Assembly: GCF_034092465.1 (NCBI RefSeq)
Contig: NZ_CP139303.1
Coordinates: forward strand, 620,001 to 684,000
DNA: 64,000 nucleotides
Source of the DNA: Prochlorococcus sp. MIT 1223
GTDB lineage: Bacteria; Cyanobacteriota; Cyanobacteriia; PCC-6307; Cyanobiaceae
Reading direction: 5' to 3'
Positions 3,303 through 61,972 of this stretch are shown one piece after another. Numbering within the stretch: position 1 is the first letter of the stretch; every line of letters starts with the position of its first letter. A model generated the notes under the pieces. The model did not search any database, was not told the origin of the DNA, and saw only the letters and a program-made list of their open reading frames with translations. The translations under genes and the position numbers were made by a program.

Positions 3303-4379
3303 ATGACGATCGCTGTTGGAAGCGCACCAGAAAGAGGATGGTTTGACCTCCTCGACGACTGGATAAAGCGTGACCGATTCGTATTTATTGGATGGTCTGG
3401 TCTCCTGCTATTCCCTTGTGCCTTCTTGGCAATAGGCGGATGGTTTGTTGGCACAACCTTCGTTACCTCCTGGTACACCCATGGTGTTGCCAGCTCCTAC
3501 TTAGAAGGCTGCAATTTCCTAACCGCAGCTGTTAGTACCCCTGGAGATGCCATGGGTCACAGTCTTCTTTTCCTTTGGGGGCCAGAAGCCCAAGGAAGCT
3601 TAGTTAGATGGTTCCAACTAGGTGGTCTATGGAATTTCGTGGCTCTTCACGGTGCATTTGGCCTTATAGGCTTCATGCTTCGTCAATTTGAAATTGCAAG
3701 GCTAGTTGGTATTCGTCCTTACAACGCACTCGCATTTTCTGCTGTTATTGCTGTTTATACAGCTTGCTTCCTTATATACCCATTAGGTCAGCACAGCTGG
3801 TTTTTTGCGCCATCATTTGGAGTTGCAGCTATTTTCCGCTTTGTCTTGTTTATTCAAGGCTTCCATAACATCACTTTGAATCCATTTCACATGATGGGAG
3901 TGGGCGGAATTCTTGGAGGAGCACTTCTTTGTGCAATTCATGGAGCGACGGTTCAAAACACTCTCTATGAAGATTCAAGTCAATACTCTGATGGGAAAAA
4001 GCAAAGCAGTACCTTTAGAGCCTTTGATCCAGTTCAAGAAGAGGAAACTTATTCCTTTATTACTGCAAACCGTTTCTGGAGCCAAATTTTTGGAATTGCT
4101 TTCTCCAATAAGCGTTTCCTTCATTTCATGATGCTTTTTGTACCTGTAACAGGTATGTGGGCAGCTTCAATTGGTATTGTTGGTCTTGCACTCAACTTGA
4201 GGGCATATGACTTTGTTAGTCAGGAAATCCGCGCTGCAGAAGACCCTGAATTCGAAACGTTTTACACCAAAAACATACTTTTAAACGAAGGTATGCGCGC
4301 ATGGTTGTCTTCTATTGACCAACCACACGAAAACTTTGTATTCCCAGAGGAGGTACTCCCACGTGGAAACGCCCTTTAA
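3303..4379 (+). CDS. psbD: Photosystem II reaction centre protein D2
   Basis: A 358-residue D2 protein, full length. It starts [20 protein letters not shown] and ends in [12 protein letters not shown]. With D1 it forms the photosystem II reaction centre heterodimer in the thylakoid membrane and binds P680 chlorophylls, pheophytin, QA and the non-haem iron. The five helices and the His ligands in the HGAFGLIGF and NPFHMMGV stretches are present. Codon choice is richer in C at third positions than in the surrounding genes, as expected for a highly expressed gene. Its last 17 bases overlap psbC. Confidence 0.98.
4346..4353 (+). promoter_or_regulatory. Shine-Dalgarno site setting the psbC GTG start
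   Basis: AGAGGAGG lies inside the 3' end of psbD, nine bases before the GTG at 4363. It supports GTG rather than the upstream in-frame start at 4315 as the true psbC start. Confidence 0.85.
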
Positions 4380-5745
4380 TAACCTTTTAAAGGCTCCAAA
4401 TCAAAGTATTGATGAAACAGGGTATGCCTGGTATGTAGGTAATGCTCGTTTAATCAATCTTTCTGGACGCCTTCTAGGTGCTCACATTGCACATGCTGGC
4501 CTAATAGTTTTCTGGGCAGGGGCAATGATGCTTTTCGAGGTGAGTCATTTCACTTTCGACAAGCCAATGTGGGAGCAAGGTCTAATTTGTATGCCTCATG
4601 TAGCAATGTTTGGCTATGGCATAGGACCTGGTGGAGAAGTCACAGATATATTTCCTTTCTTTGCAGCTGGAGTTGTACACCTAATTGCCTCGGCAATATT
4701 AGGTTTTGGAGGAATATTCCATTCTCTTGCTGGTCCTGAGAAACTAGAAGAAGCTTTCCCATTCTTTTCTACTGACTGGAGAGATAAGAATCAGATGACC
4801 AATATTCTTGGTTTCCATCTGATTGTTCTTGGGGTAGGTTCTCTTCTCTGGTCTATTAACTGGATGTATTTGGGTGGCGCTTATGACACCTGGGCTCCAG
4901 GCGGAGGAGAAGTAAGACTAATAAATCCAACCCTTGATCCAAGAATAATTTTTGGATATCTATTCCAAACCCCTTGGGGTGGAGGTGGATGGATGGTTGG
5001 AGTCAATTCAATGGAAGATATTGTTGGTGGTCACATTTACGTTGGTGTCATCGAAGTAATTGGTGGATTATTCCATGTATTTACTAGTCCATTTGGATGG
5101 GCTAGAAGAGCATTCATCTGGAATGGTGAAGGCCTTCTAAGTTATGCTCTTGGCGGAATTTGTGTTGCTAGTTTTGTAGCTTCATGTTTCGTATGGTTTA
5201 ACAACACTGCCTACCCATCTGAGTTTTATGGCCCAACTAATGCTGAAGCATCACAAGCCCAAAGCTTTACTTTCTTAGTTCGCGACCAAAGAATTGGAGC
5301 AAATGTTGGCACAACAATGGGACCAACAGGACTTGGTAAGTATCTAATGCGCTCACCTACTGGAGAAATTATCTTTGGTGGAGAAACAATGAGATTCTGG
5401 GATTTCAGAGGACCATGGCTTGAGCCATTAAGAGGACCCAACGGTTTAAGTCTTGACAAGATTCAGAATGATATTCAACCTTGGCAAGTTCGCCGAGCTG
5501 CTGAATATATGACTCATGCTCCTAATGCTTCTATCAACTCTGTTGGAGGAATTATTACTGAGCCTAATGCAGTTAATTTTGTAAATCTTCGTCAATGGCT
5601 TGCTGCCGCACAATTCTTCCTTGGATGGTTTACATTCATTGGACATTTATGGCATGCAGGTAGAGCAAGAGCTGCTGCTGCTGGTTTTGAGAAGGGAATC
5701 GACCGCAAAACCGAACCTGCTCTTTCAATGCCTGACTTGGATTAA
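4363..5745 (+). CDS. psbC: Photosystem II CP43 chlorophyll-binding protein
   Basis: CP43, the inner antenna of photosystem II, 460 residues from the GTG at 4363. The mature protein starts [20 protein letters not shown] and ends ALSMPDLD. Six membrane helices carry the conserved chlorophyll-ligand histidines, and the lumenal loop contains the APGGGEVR motif whose Glu and Arg contact the Mn4Ca cluster. The 17-base overlap with psbD and the GTG start are the usual cyanobacterial/plastid arrangement and imply one dicistronic message. A strong hairpin terminator follows. Confidence 0.98.
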
Positions 5746-8410: not shown

Positions 8411-8843
8411 AGCTGTCTTTATTGCTTCAAAATAAAATATATAATCTATTAATTAAATTATAAGTTTATTATTATGTATATAGTTAATACTATAAGTGAA
8501 TATTTCTATAATTTTGATATATTATTCCATTGATAAAAGAACAAACAAGGAAGGAGTGGATGATCCCAGAAGAAAGCATAATAACAGCATAAGAGTAGTT
8601 GATATTTTCAGTCATTTGACAACTACTAAATATGCTCACTTAATTTTTATCAACAAAGCCTAATAGGAAATTCTTTTAAACTGGTAAGAGGGCTCATTTA
8701 AGAAGTGACGGATCCAAAATCAGAAAAGTGAATAATTTCCATCCCGACTACCCCTTAGGAACTAAAAATAACTTTAAAACATAAAAAAGTAGATTCCACC
8801 CTTTGATACTATTAAAGTGATTAAGTTTTAAGTCATCTTGTTA
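8411..8843. other. Intergenic boundary between core backbone and glycan island
   Basis: 433 bases without a gene. It holds an 8-base inverted repeat (8594-8601 and 8620-8627, 18-base loop) and a weak extended -10-like TGATACTAT (8804-8812) ahead of the next gene. No tRNA or att-like repeat was seen. Confidence 0.5.
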
Positions 8844-9725
8844 ATGTCAACACTCCGTCCTAAAGACTTCTCTGGGATGAGTAATGAAAGCTATATCTAT
8901 GTAATTGCAGAAATTGGTATCAACCATAATGGTTCTTTAGATACCGCAAAAGAATTAATTGACTTAGCTGTAGAAGTTGGCTGTGACGCAGTTAAGTTTC
9001 AGAAAAGGACAATTAACATTGTTTATTCTGAATCTGTCTTAAATCAACCTAGAGAAAGTCCCTGGGGAAAAACTCAAAGAGAGCAAAAAGAAGGATTGGA
9101 GTTCTCTATGGAGCAATATGAGGAAATAAACAGATATTGCAAAAGCAAAAATATCGACTGGTTTGCTTCCTCCTGGGACAAAGAAAGTCAAAGGTTAATG
9201 AGGAGATTTGATTTCCCATTTAATAAAATAGCTTCAGCTATGGCAATCAATAAGTCATTTGTCGAATTAGTAGCATCTGAAAAAAAGCCAACATTTGCAT
9301 CTACAGGCATGACAAAAATCGAAGAGATAGATTGGCTAATCTCTGTATTTAAAAAACATGAATGTCCTTTGATGTTAATGTACACAGTAAGTACTTATCC
9401 ATCTAAATTAGAGCATTTAAATTTAAAGTGTATAGAAACTCTTAAAGAAAGATACGATTTACCTATTGGATATAGCGGCCATGAAGCATCTGTTTCTCCT
9501 TCAGTTGTAGCAGCAACCCTAGGAGCTGGCGCTATAGAAAGGCACATTACTTTAGATAGAGCGATGTATGGAAGTGACCAAGCGGCTTCTCTTGAGGCTG
9601 CTGGATTTAGACAATTAACTCAAATTTTAAGAAACATACCAATGATTCTAGGGGATGGTGAAAAAAGAATCTTGCGAGAGGAAGAGCTGATAGCATCTAA
9701 ATTACGCTATTGGCTTAATGAATGA
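8844..9725 (+). CDS. NeuB-family nonulosonic/sialic acid synthase lacking a SAF domain
   Basis: A 293-residue TIM-barrel synthase from the ATG at 8844 (a TTG six bases earlier is also open). Family signatures are AEIGINHNGSLDTAK near residue 26, DAVKFQKR near 50, and the late GYSGHE and GAIERHITLDR near 215-235. NeuB enzymes condense phosphoenolpyruvate with an aldose (ManNAc, 6-deoxy-AltdiNAc or a phosphorylated sugar) to form a 2-keto-3-deoxy acid. The usual C-terminal antifreeze-like (SAF) domain is absent: the protein stops right after the barrel, unlike the PseI at 32168. ATGA overlap with the next gene means translational coupling. Its acceptor sugar cannot be told. Confidence 0.85.
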   Translation: MSTLRPKDFSGMSNESYIYVIAEIGINHNGSLDTAKELIDLAVEVGCDAVKFQKRTINIVYSESVLNQPRESPWGKTQREQKEGLEFSMEQYEEINRYCKSKNIDWFASSWDKESQRLMRRFDFPFNKIASAMAINKSFVELVASEKKPTFASTGMTKIEEIDWLISVFKKHECPLMLMYTVSTYPSKLEHLNLKCIETLKERYDLPIGYSGHEASVSPSVVAATLGAGAIERHITLDRAMYGSDQAASLEAAGFRQLTQILRNIPMILGDGEKRILREEELIASKLRYWLNE

Positions 9726-20384: not shown

Positions 20385-21278
20385 ATGCATTTTTTAAGCG
20401 ATTTAACTATAGTTATTCCTTCTACTATTAATAAAGTTGTCAATAGTTGGATAGATCAAGTTAATAATTATTCTCTGTGTGGAATTAAAATAATTATAGT
20501 AATCCCTCCAAACCTAAATCCTCAAGAAATCTATAAGAAGGGATTCTCTAAAGAGATTTTAATAATCAGGTCAGAAAAAAAAGGACAGGTTTGGCAAAGG
20601 CAATATGCCTATAAATACTGTAAAACTAAATTTGTAATACTTATGGACGATGATATTTTTTTTAGCAAAGAATATATTGAAATTTTACTAAAAGAGATTT
20701 ATAAATTGCCAGAAAAATCTTGTATAGCTCCGCGCTTGAATAAAAGGTTAGTTAAGAATCAAAAATCGACAATGCTCGCTAATATAAGAAATATTAGCTT
20801 ATATTTTTCTTTAAGACCACTTCCAGGAACGATTTCTTTAACAAGTTTCTCAGTTCCACACTACTTAATAGACTATCAAAGGATAGAAACTCTAAAAGAG
20901 GTTGATTGGCTTGCCGGAGGTATTATTCTCTTAAGAAAATCTGATCTTATATTAGAAAACTATTTCCCCTTTAATGGAAAAGCATATTGCGAAGACTTGA
21001 TACATAGCTACTTACTTAAAAAGAGAGGAGTAAGATTATATTTAATAAATAATTGTAGCTATATAACTAATCTAGATTCTTATATAAATTTTAAACCAAT
21101 TGAATTTCTAGATTATATTTATCATGATTTTATTGCTCGTAATTATTATAGGAATATAATAAGAAATCCAATATTACCATTTCTATTGGCCTATATATCT
21201 ATTTTATTTAATTTCTTTATAAATAAATCCATAGATTGCTTATGTAATTTGATAGGTTATTTTAACTTTAAGGATTGA
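20385..21278 (+). CDS. Family 2 glycosyltransferase (GT-A fold)
   Basis: A 297-residue protein opening with LTIVIPSTIN, typical of GT2 enzymes. A basic segment EKKGQVWQRQYAYKY is followed by the metal-binding FVILMDDDIFFS (DDD near residues 90-92) and later EVDWLAGGIILL and FNGKAYCEDLIHSYLL, where the Glu-Asp pair fits the catalytic-base region. The C-terminus is hydrophobic (FLLAYISILFNFFI, about 262-278), suggesting membrane association. It transfers an unknown sugar during surface glycan assembly. It is convergent with the oxygenase at 21320. Confidence 0.75.
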   Translation: MHFLSDLTIVIPSTINKVVNSWIDQVNNYSLCGIKIIIVIPPNLNPQEIYKKGFSKEILIIRSEKKGQVWQRQYAYKYCKTKFVILMDDDIFFSKEYIEILLKEIYKLPEKSCIAPRLNKRLVKNQKSTMLANIRNISLYFSLRPLPGTISLTSFSVPHYLIDYQRIETLKEVDWLAGGIILLRKSDLILENYFPFNGKAYCEDLIHSYLLKKRGVRLYLINNCSYITNLDSYINFKPIEFLDYIYHDFIARNYYRNIIRNPILPFLLAYISILFNFFINKSIDCLCNLIGYFNFKD

Positions 21279-22587: not shown

Positions 22588-23580
22588 ATGGATAATCAGT
22601 CAACAATTTTAATTACTGGTGGAACTGGTTCATTTGGTAATGCATTTGTGCCTTTAACACTCGCGAGGTACAACCCTAAAAAAATAATCATTTATTCAAG
22701 AGACGAAATGAAGCAATGGGAAATGTCTCAGATGTTTAAAGATGATGAGAGAGTACAGTTTCGGATTGGAGATGTAAGAGATAAAGATAGATTACGCTCA
22801 TGTCTTAAAGGCATCGACCTTGTTGTGCATGCAGCTGCTACTAAAATAGTTCCCACAGCTGAATATAACCCAATTGAATGTATAAAAACTAACATTAATG
22901 GAGCAGCGAACGTAATTGAAGCCTCCATCGAAGAAAAAGTTAAGAAGGTTGTTGCTTTATCTACAGATAAAGCAAGTAATCCAATAAATCTATATGGAGC
23001 GACCAAATTGGCTTCAGACAAATTATTTGTAGCGTCAAATTCCTATGAAACCGGTCACTCAACAAGAGCAGCCGTTGTCAGGTATGGAAATGTAATGGGA
23101 TCAAGAGGTTCTGTAATCCCTTTCTTCATAAAAGAATCAAGTTCTGGAACACTCCCTATAACAGATAAAAGAATGACAAGATTTATGATAACCCTAGAAG
23201 AAGGAGTGAGTCTTGTTTGGAAAGCCTTTGATGATATGGCTGGGGGAGAAATATACGTAAAGAAAATTCCCTCAATGAATATTTGTGATATTGCAAAAGC
23301 TATATCGCCAAATGCAAAATTAAAAATAATAGGTATTAGGCCAGGGGAAAAGCTGCACGAGCAAATGATTGGGAAAGAGGATGCTCCTCATACATATGAA
23401 TATTCTAGTTATTATAAAATCCTACCTATGATACATAACTGGCATAAAGACCCTGAGAGGATTAAGGGTGGAACTAAAGTTGTAGAAGATTTTAACTACG
23501 TTAGTGATAAGAATCTTGACTGGATGTCAGTTGAAAGTCTTACTAAATGGATAAAGAAAAATAATATTCAATTAAGATGA
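22588..23580 (+). CDS. pseB: UDP-GlcNAc 4,6-dehydratase (inverting), pseudaminic pathway
   Basis: A 330-residue extended SDR. It begins with TILITGGTGSFGNAFV (cofactor site), then IIIYSRDEMKQWEMSQMF, LVVHAAATKIVPTAEYNP, ALSTDKASNPINLYGATK (catalytic Thr-Asp-Lys and Tyr-x3-Lys) and RYGNVMGSRGSVIPFF. These are hallmarks of the PseB/FlaA1 group. It converts UDP-GlcNAc to UDP-2-acetamido-2,6-dideoxy-L-arabino-4-hexulose, the first committed step to pseudaminic acid. The fused reductase-PseC gene follows 7 bases later in the same operon. It is soluble and cytosolic. Confidence 0.93.
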   Translation: MDNQSTILITGGTGSFGNAFVPLTLARYNPKKIIIYSRDEMKQWEMSQMFKDDERVQFRIGDVRDKDRLRSCLKGIDLVVHAAATKIVPTAEYNPIECIKTNINGAANVIEASIEEKVKKVVALSTDKASNPINLYGATKLASDKLFVASNSYETGHSTRAAVVRYGNVMGSRGSVIPFFIKESSSGTLPITDKRMTRFMITLEEGVSLVWKAFDDMAGGEIYVKKIPSMNICDIAKAISPNAKLKIIGIRPGEKLHEQMIGKEDAPHTYEYSSYYKILPMIHNWHKDPERIKGGTKVVEDFNYVSDKNLDWMSVESLTKWIKKNNIQLR

Positions 23581-23587
23581 ACCTATT

Positions 23588-25657
23588 ATGATAAAACAAA
23601 AAGTATTAATTATCGGTTCATCTGGATTACTTGGTAAACTATGGTATGAGTCTTTATCATACAAATATGATTTCAAATTAGCCTATAACAAAAGAAAGAC
23701 ACCTAATGCTCCTGAGAAAAATTTAACAAGATTAAATATAGAATGCATAGATGAAATCACAAACTATTTAAATATAAATGAAATTGATATTGTAGTAAAT
23801 TTAGCAAGTTTAACTAATATCGAAATATGTCAACAGAACTTTGAGCTCGCATATAAGATTAACCGAGACTACGCAAGAAACATTGCATTATCTTGCAAGC
23901 AATCATCTTCCAAGCTAATTCATATTTCAACAGATCATCTATTTGGTAATGAGAATAGATTATATACTGAAGAAGATAGACCTTTACTATTAAATAACTA
24001 TGCAAAATCAAAGTATGCTGGTGAATGTGAAACACTTTCTACTTATCCCAATGCATTAATATGTAGAACTAATTTTTTTGGTTTTGGTCCAGTATATAGA
24101 AATTCATTTAGCGATTGGATAATCAACTCTCTTAGGAATCAAACAAAGATAACATTATTTAATGATGTTTATTTTACACCAGTTCTAGGTTCGCTTTTAG
24201 CGAAATATGCTCATGAGCTTATTGAAAAAGAGGCTTATGGTATATATAATATCTCTTCAGATGATACAATTACAAAATATCAATTCGGAGAATATATATC
24301 TGACATATTTGGTTTAAATAAAGAGCTTCTAGAGAAAGGAAGTCTAAGTCAAAGAAGTGATCTAACTAAGCGGCCTTTAGGAATGGCACTTTCAAATCAA
24401 AAAGCTAAATCTAAATTAAAAAAATCGTTGGGAAAAATTAAAGAGCAAATATCATTACTTTCTCGAGAAAATAATGATATTTATAATTACAAATATGGGC
24501 AGCAATGCATATCAGAAGATGACATTCAAGCAGTTGTTAATGCTCTTAGAGGCGAAAATGTAACACAGGGTCCACTTCTCGTAGAATTCGAGAATAAAAT
24601 TGCTAAAAAAGTAAAAGCTAATTACGCGACTGCTACAAATAGTGCTACTAGTGCATTGCATTTAGCCTGCTTGGCTCTTGGCCTAAAAAAAGGGCAACGC
24701 CTATGGACTTCTTCTATTAGCTTCTTATCATCGGCAAATTGTGGTATTTTCTGTGGGGCAAAAATAGATTTTGTAGATATTGAAACTTCTACCGCACTAA
24801 TTGATACTCTCTTACTTGAGGAAAAACTTGAAAAAGCAGAAAAGATAGGCAAACTTCCACATATTGTCGTTCCAGTACATCTAGCAGGGACAAGTTGTGA
24901 CATGAAAAAGATTAGGGAGTTATCTCATAAATATGGATTTAAAGTTATTGAAGATGCTAGCCATGCAATAGGTGGTTCTTATTTAGAAGAACCTATTGGA
25001 TGTTGTAAATATAGTGATATTAGTGTATTCAGTTTTCATCCGGTAAAGATAATAACAACTCTAGAAGGAGGAATGGCCTTAACCAATGATCAAAGGCTAA
25101 ATAAAAAAATGGAAAAATTAAGAGGTCATGGAATTGTTAGAGATCAAAAGGAATTTATACTTAAATCACCAGGGCCTTGGTATTACGAGCAGCAAGAATT
25201 AGGGTTTAATTATCGTTTCAATGAGATACAAGCAAGCCTAGGTATTAGTCAACTTAATAAACTAGAGGAATTTGTAAATAAAAGGCATAGTTTAATGCGA
25301 AGATATAGGGACTGGGCGTCCAAATATAAGAATATTGCCTTCCTATCTCAACCAAAAGACTGCTATAGCTCCTATCACCTGGCAATTATACGTTTAAAGA
25401 ACTCAACCCAGCAGCAGCATCTGTCTATGTTTGAATTTATGAGAAAACAAGGAGTATTTGTTCAACTACATTATTGGCCAATTCATCTTCACCCTTATTA
25501 CCTAAATTTGGGCTTTAAGAAGGGAGATTATCCAAATGCAGAATTATATGGAACAACAGCATTTAGTTTACCTCTTTACCCTTCATTAGACTTTATAGAT
25601 CAAGATAAGATCATCAAAATACTTGAAAAGGGCTTAGAGGAAAATAAACTTAATTGA
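23588..25657 (+). CDS. pseC: Fusion: RmlD-like reductase plus PseC aminotransferase
   Basis: A 689-residue bifunctional protein. Residues 1-290 are an RmlD-like (dTDP-4-keto sugar reductase) SDR: GSSGLLG (10-16), HISTDHLFG (112-120) and catalytic Tyr138-x3-Lys142. Residues 297-689 are a DegT/DnrJ/EryC1 aminotransferase matching PseC: ENVTQGPLL (323-331), NSATSALHLA (351-360), EDASHAIGG (455-463) and Schiff-base Lys487 in SFHPVKIITTLEGG. PseC transaminates the 4-keto product of PseB with glutamate. PseC is normally about 380 residues and stands alone, so the N-terminal reductase is the unusual part. The start is the ATG at 23588. Confidence 0.9.
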   Translation: MIKQKVLIIGSSGLLGKLWYESLSYKYDFKLAYNKRKTPNAPEKNLTRLNIECIDEITNYLNINEIDIVVNLASLTNIEICQQNFELAYKINRDYARNIALSCKQSSSKLIHISTDHLFGNENRLYTEEDRPLLLNNYAKSKYAGECETLSTYPNALICRTNFFGFGPVYRNSFSDWIINSLRNQTKITLFNDVYFTPVLGSLLAKYAHELIEKEAYGIYNISSDDTITKYQFGEYISDIFGLNKELLEKGSLSQRSDLTKRPLGMALSNQKAKSKLKKSLGKIKEQISLLSRENNDIYNYKYGQQCISEDDIQAVVNALRGENVTQGPLLVEFENKIAKKVKANYATATNSATSALHLACLALGLKKGQRLWTSSISFLSSANCGIFCGAKIDFVDIETSTALIDTLLLEEKLEKAEKIGKLPHIVVPVHLAGTSCDMKKIRELSHKYGFKVIEDASHAIGGSYLEEPIGCCKYSDISVFSFHPVKIITTLEGGMALTNDQRLNKKMEKLRGHGIVRDQKEFILKSPGPWYYEQQELGFNYRFNEIQASLGISQLNKLEEFVNKRHSLMRRYRDWASKYKNIAFLSQPKDCYSSYHLAIIRLKNSTQQQHLSMFEFMRKQGVFVQLHYWPIHLHPYYLNLGFKKGDYPNAELYGTTAFSLPLYPSLDFIDQDKIIKILEKGLEENKLN

Positions 25658-25701: not shown

Positions 25702-26595
25702 TTACCATCTTCTTGGATCAATAAAACTTGGATCATTATTATCTTTAACCATACTTAGAACAAATTGTTTATTATTTAGTTCAATATATTTTATTAAGTT
25801 AACAAGTTCTTTAAGATGAGATAATTTGTTAATACCAACAATATAACCATCTAATTCCTTAATAGACATAATGTATCTTAAGCAAGTCTCGACTTTACCC
25901 ATATTTAAATCCTCAGAAATTTTAACAAATCGGGCATATTGAGTTATATACTTTCTAAGTAAACATACTTCTGAGATTAAAAAGCCTTGTAAATATATTG
26001 ATCTAGCAATTACATTAGTATGATTGCCAATAAATGAACTTTTCTTAACTCTTTGGGCAGTATCATCAAATATATTACAAGGGGCTTGGATGCAATCTAT
26101 TCTGGACTTTAAATTATTACTAATATTTATTATTTCCTCTATATTGTAAATAGAAATACCGGTTCTTATCCTATAACTCTCTTTTATATATTTAAATGCT
26201 TCTATTGTGATATCTTCTAAATTTCTTTTCAATAGATCTGGAGTGTGGCATAAAATAGTATTTAGACTATCTCCAAAGAGATTAAAGCTTTGATCTATTT
26301 GATATATTATTAAATCCAAATTATGCGAATCAGTAACTACAAACTTACTAGTTATCTCCATATTTCCATCGTACATGCCTCCAATTGCACGTGAAAGGAT
26401 ATCTTCGGAATCACCATATCCGCATGATGTATCAAATTGATAACCTCCATTAATTATAAAATATTTAACTATCTGAGTTGCTTTTTCTTGATCGACATAA
26501 TCCTGATCATTACATATCCCATATTTATTTCCAAAAGAGGCTGTTCCAAGAGAAAACCTTTCTAAATATTTACTTTCAATTATTTCTTGAACCAT
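25702..26595 (-). CDS. Aldo/keto reductase
   Basis: A 297-residue AKR barrel. The tetrad is visible: Asp and Tyr in FDTSCGYGDSE near residues 53-58, Lys in ITSKF near 80 and His in ILCHTPD near 113. The opening FSLGTASFGNKYGI is typical. These NAD(P)H enzymes reduce carbonyls of sugars. AKR genes are often found inside nonulosonic acid clusters, and here it faces the end of the pseC fusion and lies downstream of a class III aminotransferase. Its role in this glycan is not defined. Confidence 0.8.
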   Translation of the reverse strand: MVQEIIESKYLERFSLGTASFGNKYGICNDQDYVDQEKATQIVKYFIINGGYQFDTSCGYGDSEDILSRAIGGMYDGNMEITSKFVVTDSHNLDLIIYQIDQSFNLFGDSLNTILCHTPDLLKRNLEDITIEAFKYIKESYRIRTGISIYNIEEIINISNNLKSRIDCIQAPCNIFDDTAQRVKKSSFIGNHTNVIARSIYLQGFLISEVCLLRKYITQYARFVKISEDLNMGKVETCLRYIMSIKELDGYIVGINKLSHLKELVNLIKYIELNNKQFVLSMVKDNNDPSFIDPRRW

Positions 26596-26749
26596 GAATT
26601 AGAGTAGGATATATTAAATAGTAATCTAGCATGAGAACAATGTGAAATAACTCATTAAATTGTTCAAAATAATTGGTAAATAATGTTTACTTCTAAATTA
26701 ATTTTACAACTTAATGATCATATAAGATTGCAGGCATATTTATATGAAA

Positions 26750-28066
26750 TTAATTTAGTCTTTGAAAACTACTTCCACAGAGTTCGTTCTCTGGTACTAA
26801 AGGTTCTTTTATTTCACCAACCTCTCTAGCATAAATAGCCTTAAATATTTCATCAATCTTTTCGAAATACTCATTAAAATCTAGGGACATATGAGCTGTA
26901 CTGACGAAAAAAAGATTACTTGCTAGATAACCAATTTTAAGAAATTCACGCGTCATATAAGTTTTATATTCTATTGCATTCTTTGAAATAAAGTTGAATG
27001 TTGCTATAGGAGGTAATACTCCAACTTCTATTTTCACCTTATTTCTTTTTGCTAAAGATTCCCATCTTCTTTGAACAGAAGTTCCCAACTCAGTTATTCT
27101 TTCCCAAGACTTTATCCTTTCCATTTCCCTAAGTGTTTCCAACGCAGCAACATAACCAATTCGCTCAGTCCAGAAGGTACTGCTAATAAAGCTATCTTTA
27201 GCTGACTTCATAATGTCTTTCCTACCTAATACTGCTGAAATAGCATAACCATTGCCTAGCGCCTTACCAAATACAGCTATATCTGGAAATACATTGTATT
27301 TGAGATGTATTCCTCCATATGTTTCTCTAAATCCAGAGGTGCATTCATCAAATATTAAAACTATACCTTGCTCATCACATAATTTTCTAACTGAAGACAG
27401 GAATTCAAAAGAAGGCAAGATATTTCTAGTAACCTCCATCTTTATTGTCCCTATTTCACCTTTATTCTCTTCAAGAACTTTATTCAAACTAGAAAGATTG
27501 TTCCATTCAAATGGAATAGATGTTCCTTTTAGAGAATCTGGAATACCTTCTGTTTTAATATCTTTAAATAAATGATTTGCCAATGCACTTTCTTTTTTCC
27601 CTGCTGCCATATACCAATCATGCCAACCATGATATCCGCAGAATGCTACCTTCTCTCTTTTACTAAATGCCCTAGCTATTCTAATTGATATAGCGTTCGC
27701 TTCACCTCCACCACGAGCAAATCTAGCCATTCCAGCCCAGGGGTGGATTTCTATCAATTTCTCGGCTAATTGTACTTCTTCAGGACAATTTAAACTACAC
27801 ATATTGCCATTCTTGACAGCTCTAATGACGGCTTCATCAATATTCTCATTGCCATATCCCAATGTGTTTGTACCTATCCCCATGATACTCATATCTACAT
27901 ACTTTCTATTTTCTAAATCCCATATAAAATAACCTTTTGCTTTATCATAGTAAGTTGGCCACAAATTTGGCGCAAATAGATCTGGTCTCTTTGAAATAAG
28001 ACTATTTCCTCCTGGTATTAATTCCTTGCTTTTTATCCAAAGAGTTTGTCCAGAATTCATAATCAA
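26750..28066 (-). CDS. Class III aminotransferase, glutamate-1-semialdehyde-mutase-like
   Basis: A 438-residue fold-type I PLP enzyme. Key motifs are ARGGGEANAISIRIAR near 117, CGYHGWHDWY near 143, the PLP-binding IFDECTSGFR near 238 and the Schiff-base Lys in FGKALGNGYAISA near 268-272. It resembles HemL but lacks the close match expected of the tetrapyrrole enzyme. Homologues of this type recur in nonulosonic acid and capsule clusters, where they are thought to act on sugars. It lies upstream of the aldo/keto reductase on the same strand. I infer a glycan role, not haem synthesis. Confidence 0.8.
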   Translation of the reverse strand: MIMNSGQTLWIKSKELIPGGNSLISKRPDLFAPNLWPTYYDKAKGYFIWDLENRKYVDMSIMGIGTNTLGYGNENIDEAVIRAVKNGNMCSLNCPEEVQLAEKLIEIHPWAGMARFARGGGEANAISIRIARAFSKREKVAFCGYHGWHDWYMAAGKKESALANHLFKDIKTEGIPDSLKGTSIPFEWNNLSSLNKVLEENKGEIGTIKMEVTRNILPSFEFLSSVRKLCDEQGIVLIFDECTSGFRETYGGIHLKYNVFPDIAVFGKALGNGYAISAVLGRKDIMKSAKDSFISSTFWTERIGYVAALETLREMERIKSWERITELGTSVQRRWESLAKRNKVKIEVGVLPPIATFNFISKNAIEYKTYMTREFLKIGYLASNLFFVSTAHMSLDFNEYFEKIDEIFKAIYAREVGEIKEPLVPENELCGSSFQRLN

Positions 28067-30430: not shown

Positions 30431-31189
30431 TTAGATTTTAAAATCATTAGCCTTTGATATTTTTAAGCCTTCATTTCGAATGATATTTGCATTTATTTCT
30501 AGAAGTTCTGGATTTTCATTTAAATATCTTTTTATATCTTTAAAACTATAATATTTAGAGTTAAATTCTCTATCAAAGTGTTTAGTGATAATTGAGACTA
30601 AATCATAGTCTCTTGGCTCATCAACAACTATTCTAATGTTACTATCGTCAGTTGAATTTAACAGAGGAACAATCTTAAATTTATCCTTATTATTATGAAT
30701 ATATTGAGTTATATGTTCTCTCTCGGAATTATAAATAGAATTTTTGAGACATAAACTTAGAGCTTTAAAAGAGATAGCCTCTGCATCTAAACCTTCAGCA
30801 AATGATTCATGTACCCAACTATATTCTGCTTTACTGGTATAGTATTTTTCGATTAAATTGTCTACTATACCTACATCAATTAAAGGACAGTCTCCTGTCA
30901 GCCTAATTAATGTTAATGGATTATATTTCTTGGAAGCTGCATACACTCGTGCTAAAACATCATTTTCAGAGCCCCGGTAAGTATCAATTCCTAATGAATT
31001 AGTATATAGGCTTAATTGGTCATCACTAACTGATGAAGTTGTCGCCACTATTAATTTATTGATTAATCGAGAGGATTTCAATCTATTTATCATATATCCA
31101 ATCATAGGGATACCTGATAATGGAAGCATTGCTTTACCAGGCAGGCGAGTCGAATCAGTTCTAACCTGAATAACTGCTAAGTTTTTCAA
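30431..31189 (-). CDS. pseF: CMP-pseudaminic acid cytidylyltransferase (SpsF/PseF-like)
   Basis: A 252-residue GT-A nucleotidyltransferase with the CTP-binding VIQVRTDSTRLPGKAMLP at residues 5-22, YRGSENDVLARVY near 73-85, and LIRLTGDCPLID near 94-105, where Asp residues bind magnesium. It closely follows the SpsF pattern. Within a pseudaminic cluster (pseI and pseG upstream on the same strand) it is the natural candidate to make CMP-Pse from Pse and CTP. It belongs to the same family as, but is distinct from, the enzyme at 13131. The symbol is assigned by context. Confidence 0.75.
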   Translation of the reverse strand: MKNLAVIQVRTDSTRLPGKAMLPLSGIPMIGYMINRLKSSRLINKLIVATTSSVSDDQLSLYTNSLGIDTYRGSENDVLARVYAASKKYNPLTLIRLTGDCPLIDVGIVDNLIEKYYTSKAEYSWVHESFAEGLDAEAISFKALSLCLKNSIYNSEREHITQYIHNNKDKFKIVPLLNSTDDSNIRIVVDEPRDYDLVSIITKHFDREFNSKYYSFKDIKRYLNENPELLEINANIIRNEGLKISKANDFKI

Positions 31190-32167: not shown

Positions 32168-33241
32168 TTAATTGATTAAGTCATCCTTTTTAAGAGGTTG
32201 ATTTTCTTTTATATCTATTCTGATTCTCCTATTAATAACGTCCTCAAAATCCATTGTTGAAATACCTTTTTCTGAGGAAGGAGCTCTAATACTTTGTACA
32301 TTAGACCAATTCAGAGTTTCATTAGCCTTAATATATGATTTAGACCATAGTTGTCTTGTAAAAATTGAATCATTCTCAAGATCTCTATCGCCACCATAAA
32401 CTATTTTTCCATTACTTGCTTCCCATATTTCTTTAGATAAGGTACATAGTTGTTCTAACTCATGAGGTTCTAGAGAGAACTTTGAATCTGGAGAATCATC
32501 TTCTCTGGAAATAGTTATATGTTTTTCTATAACAGAAGCTCCCATCGATATACTTGCTAAGGATGCATATATATCCAAACTATGGTCTGAGATACCAACT
32601 GGCAGACCAAACTGTTTTTTAATGTCGCTAATTGTATTAAGACTCATCTCAGATAATCTCGCTGGATAGGCACTAATACAATGCAAAATACAAATATTAT
32701 TAGAGCCTTGTTTTCTCATAAATTCAATTGTTCGAATAAAATCAGCCTTTGTTGAAGTCCCCGTAGAGATTATTATTGGCTTACGTTCTTGTATTATTCT
32801 TTGAATTAGAGGCCAGTCATGAGCTTCGTTAGACGCAACCTTATAAGCAAAGGCATTTAAGCCAGAAAGTAAGTCAACTGCTTGGAAGTCGAATGGTGAA
32901 CTGAAAATATCAATATTTAAATCATTTGCATAATCGAAAAGTGGCTTATGCCATTCCCAAGGAGTATACGTTTTTTTATATAATTCATATAAATTTTGCC
33001 CTTCCCAAGCTCCACTTTTAAGTCTAAACCTTGGGTCATCATTTGGTAAGGTTATAGTACTTGGATTAAAAGTCTGAAGTTTAACTGCATCTGCTCCAGA
33101 ATATTTTGCTATTTCTATAAGCCTCTTTGCTCTATCAAAGCTTCCTAAGTGGTTTCCCGAAATTTCAGCAATAATATATGGTCTGTTTCCTTCTCCAATG
33201 ACTTGTTTAGATAATTTGAAACTGGAATGATCTTGAGACAT
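32168..33241 (-). CDS. pseI: Pseudaminic acid synthase
   Basis: A 357-residue NeuB-family enzyme with both domains. The TIM barrel (about residues 15-270) has YIIAEISGNHLGSFDRA, ADAVKLQTFNPSTITL, FSSPFDFQAVDLL, ISTGTSTKADF, GISDHSLD and ASVIEKHITI. The C-terminal SAF domain (about 290-357) ends in RRIRIDIKENQPLKKDDL. The AEISGNHLG form and EGQNLYELYKK block are typical of PseI. It condenses PEP with 2,4-diacetamido-2,4,6-trideoxy-L-altrose to form Pse. It is adjacent to pseG (10 bases), as in many clusters. Confidence 0.9.
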   Translation of the reverse strand: MSQDHSSFKLSKQVIGEGNRPYIIAEISGNHLGSFDRAKRLIEIAKYSGADAVKLQTFNPSTITLPNDDPRFRLKSGAWEGQNLYELYKKTYTPWEWHKPLFDYANDLNIDIFSSPFDFQAVDLLSGLNAFAYKVASNEAHDWPLIQRIIQERKPIIISTGTSTKADFIRTIEFMRKQGSNNICILHCISAYPARLSEMSLNTISDIKKQFGLPVGISDHSLDIYASLASISMGASVIEKHITISREDDSPDSKFSLEPHELEQLCTLSKEIWEASNGKIVYGGDRDLENDSIFTRQLWSKSYIKANETLNWSNVQSIRAPSSEKGISTMDFEDVINRRIRIDIKENQPLKKDDLIN

Positions 33242-33251
33242 TTGTTTACTC

Positions 33252-34292
33252 TTATTTACTTAGTGCTTCAGAGATTCTCTGAGCTCCCAATAAATCAATT
33301 ACATTCTCACAATTACTTGATAATTGTCTAAATTTTTCTTCTGAAGTGAAAAACTGCAACAATGAAGGGACATTAACTGTATTAAAAAAAAGGTCTCCTA
33401 AGTAAGAGTACTTTAAAACTGAATTAAAGGTAAGTAGTGGTTCATAATTAGGTGAAACACCATAAGTAAAGTAAATAAATGGAATATTAAAACTAAGGCA
33501 TTCATAACGTGTCATTCCAATAGTTGTAATAACTAGATCTGCCCAAAGATACTGATCATTAAGTGATGTAAGACCTGAAATAAACTCTACATTAAAAGAT
33601 GTGTATAAAGATTGGATATCAGATATCATTCTATGATCGTAAAAAGGTCCAATTACAACTTTGATTTTGTTATAATTAAGGTTACTTGAATATTTAAATA
33701 ATAATTTCAAAATCTTTTCAGTAAGAAGGTGAGGATCTGAGCCCCCACAGGTAACAAGAATATTTTCTGGTAATGCGTTAATGATTTTCTTCTCTTTAAG
33801 ACTATTAATAGAGGTATTGACTGGGGCGTAAGAAGAACCAGCATATATATTTTTAAAATTAAACATAGTTAAATCTAAAACTTCAGAACCTATATATGGA
33901 ATGAAGTAATTCTCACATTTTGGAAAACACATGAATTTACTTAACCGGTCATCTCCTAAACCATCAATTATAGAGTAAGAGATATTTGAATTAACAAGAT
34001 AATTACAGTAACTAATTATTTTATAAGGATGATCTATTGATCCTTTATGAGAGAGATCAATTACTACGTGGTCAAACTTTATACTACTTTTAATAATCTC
34101 ATTTTCATAAGAAGACTCAGTACTTGCTTCAATAATAGATTCATTAAATTCCGTAGAAACAGCTTTAGCCGAATTACATGATATATATGAGTCAATACCT
34201 CTTTTATTAAAACAACTCTGAATAGCCTCGACCCTCTTTAAATGCCCTATACCAATCTTAGGGCCTACCTCAACTTTTAATAAGAAAGTCAT
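33252..34292 (-). CDS. pseG: UDP-6-deoxy-AltdiNAc hydrolase
   Basis: A 346-residue GT-B-fold hydrolase. GIGHLKR at residues 14-20 holds His17, at the position of the catalytic base of characterised PseG. The C-terminal half has ILVTCGGSDPH near 178 and TIGMTRYECLSFNIPFI near 256, the nucleotide-sugar-binding loop. PseG cleaves UDP from UDP-2,4-diacetamido-2,4,6-trideoxy-beta-L-altropyranose to give the substrate of PseI. It is the first gene of the operon pseG-pseI-wbqC-pseF. Confidence 0.88.
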   Translation of the reverse strand: MTFLLKVEVGPKIGIGHLKRVEAIQSCFNKRGIDSYISCNSAKAVSTEFNESIIEASTESSYENEIIKSSIKFDHVVIDLSHKGSIDHPYKIISYCNYLVNSNISYSIIDGLGDDRLSKFMCFPKCENYFIPYIGSEVLDLTMFNFKNIYAGSSYAPVNTSINSLKEKKIINALPENILVTCGGSDPHLLTEKILKLLFKYSSNLNYNKIKVVIGPFYDHRMISDIQSLYTSFNVEFISGLTSLNDQYLWADLVITTIGMTRYECLSFNIPFIYFTYGVSPNYEPLLTFNSVLKYSYLGDLFFNTVNVPSLLQFFTSEEKFRQLSSNCENVIDLLGAQRISEALSK

Positions 34293-36418: not shown

Positions 36419-37933
36419 TTATTTCATAAGTGATTTAACTGTAATTTCACTCAATGGCTGTCTTATACGATTGATTTCTAATAGTAGTTTATTATACATT
36501 TCATTAATACTTATTTCATTTAACCGATCATATTTATATGTGTTCATGATGCTTCCTAAATCCTTATAAGAAGAGACACTTTTTATTAATCTAGATCTTA
36601 TTTGCCATAATGGGTCTGAAAGATCATTACTAATTCCACAAAGTAAGCGTATTGGTATACATCCCTCTTGTAAAGCTTCGAATATGGCTGTACTTCCACA
36701 GTATATTGCCCATCGTGATTTACTACAGTCTCTAGAGATATGACTATTGCTTAACTTAAAATTACTTAAATGCATAAATCTTTTATTTAGAAATTTATCC
36801 CTCATTAAAGGATGAAATCTTATGATTACATCCGAATTAGGGTACATTTTCGCAAAATTATAAGCAAATTCAAAGAAGTATATCGCTTCTTCTTCTTCCC
36901 CAGAAGGAAGGAATAGAAATGTATTAGTAGTATTTAGAGCTGCTGATTTAGAATTGTCAGTCTTAACTTTTGGAGATCCAATTGTCTTGATGATTATATT
37001 ATCATCAAATTTAATCTCTAAATCATCAGAGATTTTAGTTCCAGTAGTTAAGATATAGTCTGGGTCCCATTCAGCCTTTAGATGTCTCATTAATGAATGT
37101 TGATGTTTAAAAATTAATGTATGCTGAAAGCCATAACATCTAATTTCTCTTCGAGCCTCTTTTGCGCTGCAATAGTAAAAACGTTCCCAAGAATGACCTT
37201 CATAAGTCGTTAATAACATGTTACAGTTTGTTTTATAGACTAATTCTGATATCTGAATACCAGAAATAATATTCGTGTAATTACAGTAAGAGAGAAATGT
37301 CTCAGCTGTATACAAATAAAGATTACTTATATATCCTGATGTTTCTTGTGAAAGGGATAGTAATCTACTCCTCTCCTTAAGTAAGCTTATAATGCTTTTA
37401 AATTTATCCTTTAAATTAACAAGTTGATCCATCAATATATAACTCTTATATTCTCTTTGTATTGATAAGTATTTTTTTATATCTGATAATGAATAATATC
37501 CATGAGGAATAAAAATATGTAAAACTGATTTCTTACTAGAGCAAATAAGATTGATTAAATTTCCATAATAATGGTCAATATCATCCTTTAACTGTATTTT
37601 ATTATTCAAGTGGCTAACTATCAGAATATCAAATTGATCCTTAAAAAGATTAGTTTTATGTTTAAATAAATATTGCTTATATATCTTTATGCTTGAGAGT
37701 ACGTCTTTAATGCAATTAAATAAACAAACATAAAACCTGAAGCGAAGTAATACTCTTTTTCTTAATGAGACTAATTTAAGATCTTTCAAGACTTTTAGTG
37801 TTCTATCAAGGGGCCTACTCGGATGTAGGAAATAGTGACTTAATGTATATTTATTAGATTCTGAGCTCTTTAAAACAGAGTCGGTAAATTTTGTATATTC
37901 ATACCACTCAGATGGAAGCGAAATCTTTTTCAT
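36419..37933 (-). CDS. Putative surface-glycan transferase, GT-B fold with HP motif
   Basis: A 504-residue cytosolic protein with the same overall plan as the one at 11735. A first Rossmann-like half includes LLTTYEGHSWERFYYCSAKE near residue 236, followed by CYGFQHTLIF. The donor-binding half has FLFLPSGEEEEA near 338, IIRFHPLMRDK near 366 and AIYCGSTAIFEALQEGCIPI near 405-424. The HP motif plus a G-S/T-x-x-x-E-A loop suggests a nucleotide-sugar-dependent transferase, possibly for nonulosonic acids. It stands alone on the minus strand. The exact family is uncertain. Confidence 0.55.
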   Translation of the reverse strand: MKKISLPSEWYEYTKFTDSVLKSSESNKYTLSHYFLHPSRPLDRTLKVLKDLKLVSLRKRVLLRFRFYVCLFNCIKDVLSSIKIYKQYLFKHKTNLFKDQFDILIVSHLNNKIQLKDDIDHYYGNLINLICSSKKSVLHIFIPHGYYSLSDIKKYLSIQREYKSYILMDQLVNLKDKFKSIISLLKERSRLLSLSQETSGYISNLYLYTAETFLSYCNYTNIISGIQISELVYKTNCNMLLTTYEGHSWERFYYCSAKEARREIRCYGFQHTLIFKHQHSLMRHLKAEWDPDYILTTGTKISDDLEIKFDDNIIIKTIGSPKVKTDNSKSAALNTTNTFLFLPSGEEEEAIYFFEFAYNFAKMYPNSDVIIRFHPLMRDKFLNKRFMHLSNFKLSNSHISRDCSKSRWAIYCGSTAIFEALQEGCIPIRLLCGISNDLSDPLWQIRSRLIKSVSSYKDLGSIMNTYKYDRLNEISINEMYNKLLLEINRIRQPLSEITVKSLMK

Positions 37934-45843: not shown

Positions 45844-47106
45844 ATGGGGGGATTTCAAAAAGAATTAGATTTGAATTTGAAGTTTTTAGATAACGATATC
45901 TATCAAAATCTTTTGCCCATTATAAAAACGATACAGACAGGTGAGGTGAAAATAAATATCTGGGATATACCTTACTCTATTGGTAAATTATCTTATTTAG
46001 TTCATAGTCATTATAGATACTATGGGAAATTTCCTTCGGTTGTAGCTGGTCAAATATTAAAGCAATATCCTCCTAAAAACCCAAAAAATGATTTTATGCT
46101 CGATAACTTCTGCGGTTCTGGTACTAGCTTAGTTGAGTCTAAATTAAGAGGAATAAATTCTATTGGTATAGATATTAGTTGGTTATCGATATTGGCAAGC
46201 AAAGTAAAAGTTTCAGAGGTAAATTTCGAATACTTAGAAGATGAGCTGCAAAATCTAATAAGATCATTTAAAGAAAAAAGTCATTTATTCGAAGACCTCC
46301 CTATTGATTATTTCTGCTCAAAGTGGTTCTCAAATAAAGTTGCGTTTGAGTTAACTATCATTAAAGATTACTTAATAGGAATGAACTATAGTCCAGAGAG
46401 AGATTTTTTAATAGTAGCCTTTATCGCTATAGTAAGAAGAGTTTCATTAGCTTTTGATGGAGAAGTAAGGCCACATATTAATAGGACAAAACGTCCAAGA
46501 GATGTCTTGTCTGCCTATATTAAAAAAACTAATGATATGGTCAAGAATCAAAAGAGTTTTAATGATTTATGTCCTAGTAACACAATAGAAAAAACCTTTT
46601 TGGGAGATAATTTAAATCTAAGTAAAATCAAGTACTTACATGATAAAAATATTTATTTAGTTATAAGTCATCCCCCATATCTTAATAGTTTTAATTATAG
46701 TCCAGTATACAACCTGGAATTTTATTGGGGAAAATATTTTGAGAATGAATATGTTGACAAAGAAAAAATAAGTTTACACAAAACAGAGCTTAAAGCGCAT
46801 CCAGCTAATGAAATAATTCAAAACAAATACTTTGAACATTTAAAAAAATGTTATGAAGAAACCTATTCTATTCAGGAGAAAGACGGCAAATTAGCAATTG
46901 TAATTGGAGATTGTTCTAGAAATAAAAAACATATTCCTGTTATTAATAGATTAATTGATATAGTTAAGTTAATTGGATACGAATTAGTTGAAATCAACTA
47001 TAGAACCACCCATTATGGATTAGGTAAGTATGCGTACAATCACAGAGCAGATTATCACGGAAATAATGAAGAGAAAAGAGATGCCATAATTATTTTTAAG
47101 AAATAA
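45844..47106 (+). CDS. Type II-like DNA methyltransferase (N4-cytosine/N6-adenine)
   Basis: A 420-residue amino-methyltransferase. The S-adenosylmethionine motif DNFCGSGTSL (87-96) precedes the catalytic motif ISHPPYLNSF (274-283), where SHPPY stands for (D/N/S)PPY. Motif I lies before motif IV, with the likely target-recognition segment between them. Relatives methylate cytosine N4 or adenine N6 in duplex DNA. It faces a convergent gene pair that looks like the matching endonuclease and a small ORF. The recognition sequence cannot be read. AT content matches the island. Confidence 0.82.
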   Translation: MGGFQKELDLNLKFLDNDIYQNLLPIIKTIQTGEVKINIWDIPYSIGKLSYLVHSHYRYYGKFPSVVAGQILKQYPPKNPKNDFMLDNFCGSGTSLVESKLRGINSIGIDISWLSILASKVKVSEVNFEYLEDELQNLIRSFKEKSHLFEDLPIDYFCSKWFSNKVAFELTIIKDYLIGMNYSPERDFLIVAFIAIVRRVSLAFDGEVRPHINRTKRPRDVLSAYIKKTNDMVKNQKSFNDLCPSNTIEKTFLGDNLNLSKIKYLHDKNIYLVISHPPYLNSFNYSPVYNLEFYWGKYFENEYVDKEKISLHKTELKAHPANEIIQNKYFEHLKKCYEETYSIQEKDGKLAIVIGDCSRNKKHIPVINRLIDIVKLIGYELVEINYRTTHYGLGKYAYNHRADYHGNNEEKRDAIIIFKK

Positions 47107-47260: not shown

Positions 47261-48199
47261 TTAATCCCCAAATATTTCCTCAAATTCTTTAAAAGCTTTT
47301 ATTAAAAGTTTATCCGAGATTATTAAATTTTTATCAATACAAGCCTTTATCATTTTTTGACTTTTTATTTCCCAATGTGAAAATTCCGTTAAGACAAGTA
47401 TACTTAACATTTCTTCCTCATTATGTCTTATATCAAAACTATTAAATCTTTTTTTTCTTACATCCAATGCCACGAAAGAAGCTTGTTTAGCTTTCTCAGG
47501 CGTTTGAGGGCCAGAGAGACAATCATTTAATAGGCCCAGGCAATATTCATTCTGTTTTATTGAGATATCAAGTATTTTGCAACTTTTCAAATTATCTTTA
47601 TAAGACCTTAGACTCTGATCATTTTTTAAAACCTTTGACTCATTTTTATCCGAAAGTGTAAATATTATCCTGTGATTATCTACCAGTTTTTCTTTAATTA
47701 ATAATTTAGTATTTTCTTCGAATATATTAATTCTTTCTTTATCAATTTTTATATGATATTTATATTTTTGAGCAGAATTCCTTGGGCTAAAATTTATTGT
47801 AAAATTTTCATCATAAGGAATTTTATAATAGTTGCTTGTGGTATCTTTTGAAAATTGTTTCTTAAATTTTCCATTTATTGTTTGCTCAACGCCAACTTTT
47901 TTACACTCAATAAATCCCAGAATCGTTTCTGTATGACTTATTTCTCCTCCATTTAATATTAATGCTTCTCCATTTATATCAAAATTATTATTCTTGGATA
48001 TGACAAATTCTACTTTATGACCAGCATCTGAAAACCCAAATAGTTTGGGCTCTATATTTAGTCTTGACTTTAAATTATCATCATAAAGTAATGATCCAAA
48101 AGTCAATAGTTCCAACATATCTCCCACTTTCCTGCCAATTTGATGACCAGCTTTTCTGTAAAAAGAAATATATTTAAAAACCTCTGATAAATAAGTCAT
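47261..48199 (-). CDS. Putative type II restriction endonuclease (PD-(D/E)xK-like)
   Basis: A 312-residue cytosolic protein, poorly conserved overall. HKVEFVISKN (61-70) and GFIECKKVGVE (95-105) fit a PD-(D/E)xK core with catalytic E98-x-K100 and an acidic partner upstream. Lysine-rich beta/alpha stretches follow and the C-terminal third is helical. The name rests mainly on context: it converges with a DNA methyltransferase, the usual partner of a restriction enzyme. If the pair is active, the host DNA would be methylated and foreign DNA cut. The start is the ATG at 48199. Confidence 0.62.
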   Translation of the reverse strand: MTYLSEVFKYISFYRKAGHQIGRKVGDMLELLTFGSLLYDDNLKSRLNIEPKLFGFSDAGHKVEFVISKNNNFDINGEALILNGGEISHTETILGFIECKKVGVEQTINGKFKKQFSKDTTSNYYKIPYDENFTINFSPRNSAQKYKYHIKIDKERINIFEENTKLLIKEKLVDNHRIIFTLSDKNESKVLKNDQSLRSYKDNLKSCKILDISIKQNEYCLGLLNDCLSGPQTPEKAKQASFVALDVRKKRFNSFDIRHNEEEMLSILVLTEFSHWEIKSQKMIKACIDKNLIISDKLLIKAFKEFEEIFGD

Positions 48200-61750: not shown

Positions 61751-61972
61751 ATGCACTCCACAGTCTCTGACTGGATGCCTGGACAGTATTTCGTTACTAT
61801 CAAAGACGTATCGAAGTTTCTAAATGTCTCCAGATCCACTATCACTAGAAAAGAACAGAAGAATCAGTTTCCGAGAAGACAACAGATCTTAGGGAAAAGG
61901 GTTGGGTACAAGAAGGAATACATCCTTCAGTTTGTTGAAGGCACCTGGTCTCCTGAAGGAGGCACGAAATGA
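61751..61972 (+). CDS. AlpA/excisionase-like HTH protein
   Basis: A 73-residue protein with a MerR/AlpA-type helix-turn-helix: VTIKDVSKFLNVSRSTITRK near residues 15-34, then FPRRQQILGKRVGYKKEYIL, the wing typical of AlpA/excisionase family members. These bind DNA and often control or aid integrase-mediated excision. It overlaps the recombinase gene by ATGA, forming a control-plus-recombinase operon. G+C content is visibly higher than in the island. Confidence 0.82.
   Translation: MHSTVSDWMPGQYFVTIKDVSKFLNVSRSTITRKEQKNQFPRRQQILGKRVGYKKEYILQFVEGTWSPEGGTK

What the first reader, a model, noticed from the sequence alone, without database searches (positions are those of the whole stretch)
23588..25657. 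RmlD-like reductase fused to PseC
PseC is normally a stand-alone aminotransferase. Here it follows a complete RmlD-type reductase domain with intact Tyr-x3-Lys. The fusion may channel a 4-keto intermediate or make a reduced, neutral variant of the sugar, giving two products from one PseB substrate.
Basis: partly seen in the sequence, partly recalled or inferred. Interest (0 to 1): 0.65.

Follow-up and report, generated by a model that had tools for sequence, protein, structure and literature searches.

The report
Reductase fused to pseudaminic-acid aminotransferase
A marine cyanobacterium carries one protein that joins two sugar-making enzymes which probably compete for the same intermediate, and the same join has arisen at least three times in unrelated bacteria, so the pairing is probably useful rather than accidental.

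Summary
Window 23588-25657 encodes one 689-aa protein: an RmlD-type reductase (residues 1-294) followed by a PseC-grade aminotransferase (302-681), just after PseB. It is not a sequencing error: 0 of 173 orthologues in this assembly are frame-split, and the PseC half has no start codon of its own. The fusion is not unique. I found seven more, in Bacteroidota (four species of one genus) and Pseudomonadota (three). Trees of both halves need three separate origins, and the window's halves group with unfused genes from related cyanobacteria, one with the operon PseB-reductase-PseC. Elsewhere the same reductase follows PseB in genomes with no detectable PseC. The likeliest reading is therefore a branch-point enzyme: PseC aminates the PseB 4-ketosugar while the reductase reduces it, probably to UDP-6-deoxy-L-AltNAc, a sugar known from one O-antigen. 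Catalytic Ser/Thr-Tyr-Lys is intact in 17 of 17 subfamily members examined, including five fusions. However, two of the three Pseudomonadota fusions have lost those residues while keeping the domain, so a structural or regulatory role is a serious rival. Channelling a ketone into PseC is unlikely, because RmlD-type enzymes consume it. Activity and product are untested.

The parts
22588..23580 (+). PseB, UDP-GlcNAc 4,6-dehydratase (C5-inverting); makes the presumed shared substrate
   Evidence: TIGR03589 505 bits, cut-off 407.75
23588..24469 (+). RmlD-type reductase half, residues 1-294; NAD(P) motif GSSGLLG (residues 10-16), catalytic Ser114/Thr115, Tyr138 (23999-24001), Lys142 (24011-24013)
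   Evidence: Pfam PF04321 127.6 bits; model pLDDT 95.9, TMt 0.91 to 3sc6; residue table
24464..24490 (+). short linker, residues 293-301, with no in-frame start codon; possible relic out-of-frame pseC ATG at about 24474
24491..25630 (+). PseC aminotransferase half, residues 302-681; PLP lysine 487 (25046-25048)
   Evidence: TIGR03588 487 bits, cut-off 423.5; 2fni TMt 0.95
25702..26595 (-). aldo/keto reductase, recurrent neighbour of such clusters
   Evidence: PF00248; neighbours
26750..28066 (-). class III (GSA-like) aminotransferase, recurrent neighbour
   Evidence: PF00202
30431..31189 (-). SpsF/PseF-like cytidylyltransferase (far below the PseF cut-off)
   Evidence: PF02348; TIGR03584 27.6 bits against 205.7
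32168..33241 (-). PseI, pseudaminic acid synthase
   Evidence: TIGR03586 381 bits, cut-off 340.25
33252..34292 (-). PseG-like hydrolase (divergent)
   Evidence: TIGR03590 64.8 bits, below cut-off 153.55

Best explanation
A bifunctional branch-point enzyme. PseB turns UDP-GlcNAc into UDP-4-keto-6-deoxy-L-AltNAc (established for PseB). The PseC half aminates C4 towards pseudaminic acid (shown here only by family membership). The RmlD-type half, with NADPH, reduces C4 of the same ketosugar to UDP-2-acetamido-2,6-dideoxy-L-hexose (inferred), most likely L-altro, i.e. UDP-6-deoxy-L-AltNAc (inferred from RmlD stereochemistry). The fusion arose when two adjacent, overlapping genes of a PseB-reductase-PseC operon were joined in frame (inferred from the relative G041). 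It would keep the two competing activities at a fixed ratio next to one pool of a short-lived intermediate (inferred).
For: Same order PseB-reductase-PseC with separate genes (RmlD/PseC overlap 8 nt) in cyanobacterium G041 and in Bacteroidota G1477. PseB followed by the same reductase, with no PseC-grade match in the genome, in G015, G440, G441; PseB beside it in G443. Catalytic S-[ST]-D, Tyr and Lys intact in 17 of 17 subfamily members including 5 of 5 fusions. The residues after strand 2 are usually basic, which fits NADPH. A PseB-[reductase-PseC]-GNAT-AKR-cytidylyltransferase-aminotransferase-PseG-PseI cluster in G804. Three separate fusions on both trees. The predicted sugar exists: 6-deoxy-L-AltNAc in F. 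nucleatum 25586 O-antigen (PMC13014188, PMC9912281). Path lengths between window and G041 are similar for both halves (1.79 and 1.80), so the window's reductase shows no sign of relaxation.
Against: No activity data. The fused Bacteroidota reductases have GxxSxxA in place of GxxGxxG. Two Pseudomonadota fusions kept the domain but lost catalytic Tyr/Lys or Thr/Asp/Lys, so the domain can be kept without catalysis. Most PseB-PseC pairs, even with the same PseB type, have no reductase. rmlD cut-off not reached. Most of the genomes without PseC are MAGs or drafts and may be incomplete. Three subfamily members sit near an FnlA-like dehydratase instead, so the substrate may differ.
Confidence: 0.5

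Rival explanations
1. The RmlD-type half is a structural or regulatory module (like MAT2B, an RmlD-fold regulatory subunit): it binds NADP(H) or the UDP-sugar and steadies or tunes PseC, with little or no turnover.
For: Two fusions (G1061, G981) keep the domain with a broken active site while the PseC half of G1061 still passes the PseC cut-off. MAT2B is among the closest folds. The second and third glycines are replaced in the four Bacteroidota fusions.
Against: Catalytic residues are intact in the window, all four Bacteroidota fusions and all 12 unfused subfamily members, including ones with no PseC to regulate. The degenerate pair belongs to a different reductase clade.
Confidence: 0.22
2. 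[quoted passage not shown]
For: PseB is known to epimerise its product to the D-xylo ketone (PMC13317340). Subfamily members G408, G419 and G442 lie within a few kb of an FnlA-like dehydratase.
Against: 11 of the first 15 subfamily genes found touch PseB, not another dehydratase. RmlD-family reductases act on L-configured 4-ketosugars, as the primary PseB product is (family knowledge).
Confidence: 0.18
3. The fusion channels a 4-keto intermediate from the reductase half to PseC, raising pseudaminic acid flux.
For: Fusion places the two active sites in one chain; the gene follows PseB.
Against: An RmlD-type reductase removes the C4 ketone PseC needs; the enzyme that makes the ketone is PseB, which is not fused.
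Confidence: 0.04
4. A sequencing or assembly frameshift joins two separate genes.
For: A single-base error near the junction could join them; an out-of-frame ATG lies there.
Against: 0 frame-split genes in 173 orthologues; no in-frame start for PseC; the same kind of fusion in seven other genomes.
Confidence: 0.01

Closest known systems
PseC (TIGR03588), UDP-4-amino-4,6-dideoxy-N-acetyl-beta-L-altrosamine transaminase
   Same: Residues 302-681 pass the equivalog cut-off; fold TMt 0.95 to H. pylori PseC 2fni; PLP lysine present
   Different: Carries a complete N-terminal reductase domain; solved PseC and most genomes' PseC do not
RmlD, dTDP-4-dehydrorhamnose reductase (TIGR01214)
   Same: Fold, NAD(P) motif, catalytic Ser/Thr-Tyr-Lys; a C4 reductase for L-configured 4-ketosugars
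   Different: Below the rmlD cut-off (138.8 against 224); neighbours PseB rather than RmlA/B/C; expected UDP rather than dTDP substrate; fused to PseC
[quoted passage not shown] cereus Pdeg/Preq; FnlA/FnlB)
   Same: Dehydratase and 4-reductase working in sequence to give a 6-deoxy-HexNAc
   Different: Pdeg keeps C5, giving D-QuiNAc; Preq's best known relative is a GDP-4-keto-6-deoxymannose reductase (PMC4514872); FnlA also acts at C3 (own knowledge); I know of none fused to an aminotransferase
ArnA (UDP-Ara4N pathway; from own knowledge)
   Same: A natural fusion of an SDR with a second enzyme of an amino-sugar nucleotide pathway
   Different: ArnA halves act in series (decarboxylase and formyltransferase); here the halves would compete
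MAT2B
   Same: RmlD fold kept as a partner of another enzyme
   Different: Regulates methionine adenosyltransferase; not fused; not sugar-nucleotide metabolism

Membership tests
PseC (TIGR03588) | score above curated cut-off | tested here: met
   487 against 423.5 bits
PseC (TIGR03588) | PLP-binding lysine and fold | tested here: met
   HPVK487, invariant in the fusions; 2fni TMt 0.95
PseC (TIGR03588) | partnered with PseB and later Pse genes | tested here: met
   PseB immediately upstream, PseI over cut-off; PseG-like and PseF-like below cut-off
PseC (TIGR03588) | aminates UDP-4-keto-6-deoxy-L-AltNAc | not testable with these tools
   needs assay
RmlD (TIGR01214) | score above curated cut-off | tested here: not met
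   138.8 against 224.05 bits
RmlD superfamily (PF04321, extended SDR) | family model, fold, Ser/Thr-Tyr-x3-Lys and GxxGxxG | tested here: met
   127.6 bits; 3sc6 TMt 0.91
RmlD (TIGR01214) | neighbouring rmlA/B/C genes | tested here: not met
   the neighbours scanned are PseB, AKR and a class III aminotransferase
single-origin RmlD-PseC fusion family | fused genes form one clade | tested here: not met
   AU test p 1.8e-7 (PseC, five fusions), 0.019 (reductase, five fusions), 0.00026 (reductase, eight fusions); three origins forced

The most novel reading that the evidence does not exclude
The reductase subfamily plus PseB is the missing route to 6-deoxy-L-AltNAc. The fusion is a built-in switch that splits the PseB product between this neutral sugar and pseudaminic acid, or a 7-hydroxy analogue of it, and has been assembled at least three times by convergent fusion.
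Probability: 0.3. Interest if true: 0.75.

Novelty: new variant of a known kind. Interest (0 to 1): 0.52.

Why it matters
If right, it names candidate genes for 6-deoxy-L-AltNAc, a sugar described in one O-antigen (2017) and for which I found no biosynthetic gene in the papers searched. It also shows a branch point of pseudaminic acid synthesis caught in one protein. Repeated, independent fusion of the same two activities is unusual evidence that they belong together, and the lineage with a dead reductase offers a natural experiment on catalytic versus structural roles. It also warns that 'PseB present' does not mean 'makes pseudaminic acid'.

Tried and rejected
(1) A PseB type specific to the reductase: an early tree put all nine PseBs that neighbour this reductase subfamily in one 12-row clade, but wider sampling showed PseBs with the same 67-72% identity followed by plain PseC in many Pseudomonadota and Bacteroidota; dropped. 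(2) A single ancient fusion spread by transfer: rejected by AU tests on both halves. (3) Fusion unique to this genome: rejected. (4) Viral or plasmid carriage: viral hits were distant, phage hits about 30% and partial; the plasmid hit covering both halves is two separate genes in R. leguminosarum, with a DegT protein below the PseC cut-off. (5) Sequencing artefact: rejected. (6) Literature: no report of an RmlD-PseC fusion or of 6-deoxy-L-AltNAc biosynthetic genes found; the library holds open-licence papers only.

Full report
What is there. Window 23588-25657 is a single 689-residue reading frame directly after PseB. Its first 294 residues are an RmlD-type extended SDR and residues 302-681 are a PseC that passes the curated equivalog cut-off. 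The structure model is confident for both halves (mean pLDDT 95, two-domain pTM 0.74). Alone, the first half gives pLDDT 95.9 and matches RmlD structures and MAT2B; the second matches H. pylori PseC. The host is a cyanobacterium with a 1.80-Mb single-contig genome; psbD/psbC-like genes lie at 3303-5745 (my reading of the ORFs), and Prochlorococcus is likely from size and base composition (inference).

Is it an artefact? I compared 400 kb of this genome with 400 kb of a relative: 173 orthologues, 62,337 aligned residues, no gene split between frames. The PseC half has no in-frame ATG, GTG or TTG between residues 281 and 357, whereas its conserved region begins near 302. In the relative G041 the two genes are separate and overlap by eight bases (ATGGATAA). 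The window shows a similar stretch with a net length change that brings pseC into the reductase frame, leaving a possible relic ATG near 24474 (alignment by eye).

Relatives. A first search of 99 related genomes found, in G041, the order PseB-reductase-PseC-aldo/keto reductase-class III aminotransferase, with separate genes. G015 has PseB-reductase but no PseC-grade match, next to what looks like a legionaminic-type cluster. Of 400 genomes sampled from the family, only the window's own genome was seen to carry the fusion. A scan of genome contigs found PseB-reductase pairs in Betaproteobacteria and Ignavibacteriales and a second fusion in a marine Bacteroidetes single-cell genome (L052). That genus has the fusion in four of seven species, all after PseB; in G804 the rest of a pseudaminic-type operon follows (its GNAT scores 55 bits against the PseH cut-off of 93.1). 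Wider sampling of Pseudomonadota found three more (G938, G1061, G981). These samples are not a census: queries and sensitivity differed between searches, and the fusion search of Pseudomonadota and Bacteroidota scored at most two candidates per genome.

Origins. On the PseC tree the window groups with unfused G041 (100/91; 99/91), the four Bacteroidota fusions form one clade and the three Pseudomonadota fusions another, so three changes are forced. The reductase tree gives the same three origins, with the window in a five-row group of unfused cyanobacterial genes. One fused clade is rejected (p 1.8e-7, 0.019 and 0.00026). The third lineage uses a different RmlD-like clade. The reductase's catalytic residues are intact in 17 of 17 members of the window's subfamily and in G938, but lost in G1061 (Tyr to Gly, Lys to Arg in the alignment) and altered in G981 (Thr to Ile, Asp to Glu, Lys to Arg). 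In G1061 the rmlD model no longer matches at the threshold used, while the PseC half still passes.

How it probably works. PseB gives UDP-4-keto-6-deoxy-L-AltNAc and can epimerise it further at C5 (PMC13317340). PseC aminates C4. An RmlD-type reductase would deliver hydride to the same carbonyl. Because the same reductase follows PseB in genomes where I find no PseC, the simplest reading is that it acts on the PseB product itself. Extending the stereochemistry of RmlD (C4-OH on the same side as O5 in the Fischer projection) predicts the L-altro product, 2-acetamido-2,6-dideoxy-L-altrose (inference). That sugar has been reported from F. nucleatum 25586 O-antigen, whereas 6-deoxy-idosamine has not been found in nature (PMC9912281, PMC13014188). 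The reduced sugar might enter a glycan as such, or be carried through hydrolysis and PseI to a 7-hydroxy analogue of pseudaminic acid; nothing here decides between these. Shown: fusion, domains, motif state, operons, three origins. Inferred: catalysis, substrate, product, benefit of fusion.

What argues for caution. Two fusions have kept a reductase domain with a broken active site, the Bacteroidota fusions have a relaxed glycine motif, and the nearest solved folds include MAT2B, a regulatory partner of another enzyme. A structural or regulatory role is therefore the main rival. Three subfamily members sit near FnlA-like dehydratases, so the substrate may be wider than the PseB product. An attractive idea, that a special PseB type goes with the reductase, did not survive wider sampling.

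Verdict. Real, recurrent, and mechanistically plausible as a branch-point enzyme, built from known families in a new arrangement. New variant of a known kind.

Noticed in passing
window 45844-47106 (+) and 47261-48199 (-): A DNA methylase (N6_N4_Mtase, 35.9 bits) next to a 312-aa protein with no Pfam match, inside the glycan island; possibly a restriction-modification pair.
   Followed up: partly
window 61969-63264 (+) and 63280-63972 (-): A tyrosine integrase next to a PD-(D/E)XK nuclease near the end of the glycan genes; no tRNA in the window.
   Followed up: partly
window 30431-31189 and 33252-34292: The presumed PseF and PseG genes score far below their curated cut-offs (27.6 against 205.7; 64.8 against 153.55), although PseB, PseC and PseI pass.
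   Followed up: no
window 25702-28066; L092, L139, L142, L144, L207, L318: An aldo/keto reductase, an SpsF-like cytidylyltransferase and a GSA-like class III aminotransferase recur together in nonulosonic-acid-type clusters across phyla, mostly beside PseB; their joint role is unknown.
   Followed up: partly
L135 (G419), L136 (G408), L211 (G442): Members of the same reductase subfamily near an FnlA-like dehydratase and without PseB, suggesting a role with other C5-inverting dehydratases.
   Followed up: partly
L216:2509-4554 (-), G040: A 681-aa protein with a HisF-like domain (5-246) and a C-terminal part resembling N-acetyl sugar amidotransferases by eye, close to PseB and PseC.
   Followed up: partly
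L311:1492-3573 (+) and L314:8039-10171 (-): Two RmlD-like-PseC fusions directly after PseB in which the reductase active site has decayed but the domain is kept.
   Followed up: yes
window 8838-9725: A second NeuB-family synthase gene in the same window, far from PseI, suggesting a second nonulosonic acid.
   Followed up: no
window 20385-21278, 36419-37933, 50896-51723; L135: Three proteins of the window's glycan island appear by eye to have counterparts in the G419 island that also carries the reductase.
   Followed up: no
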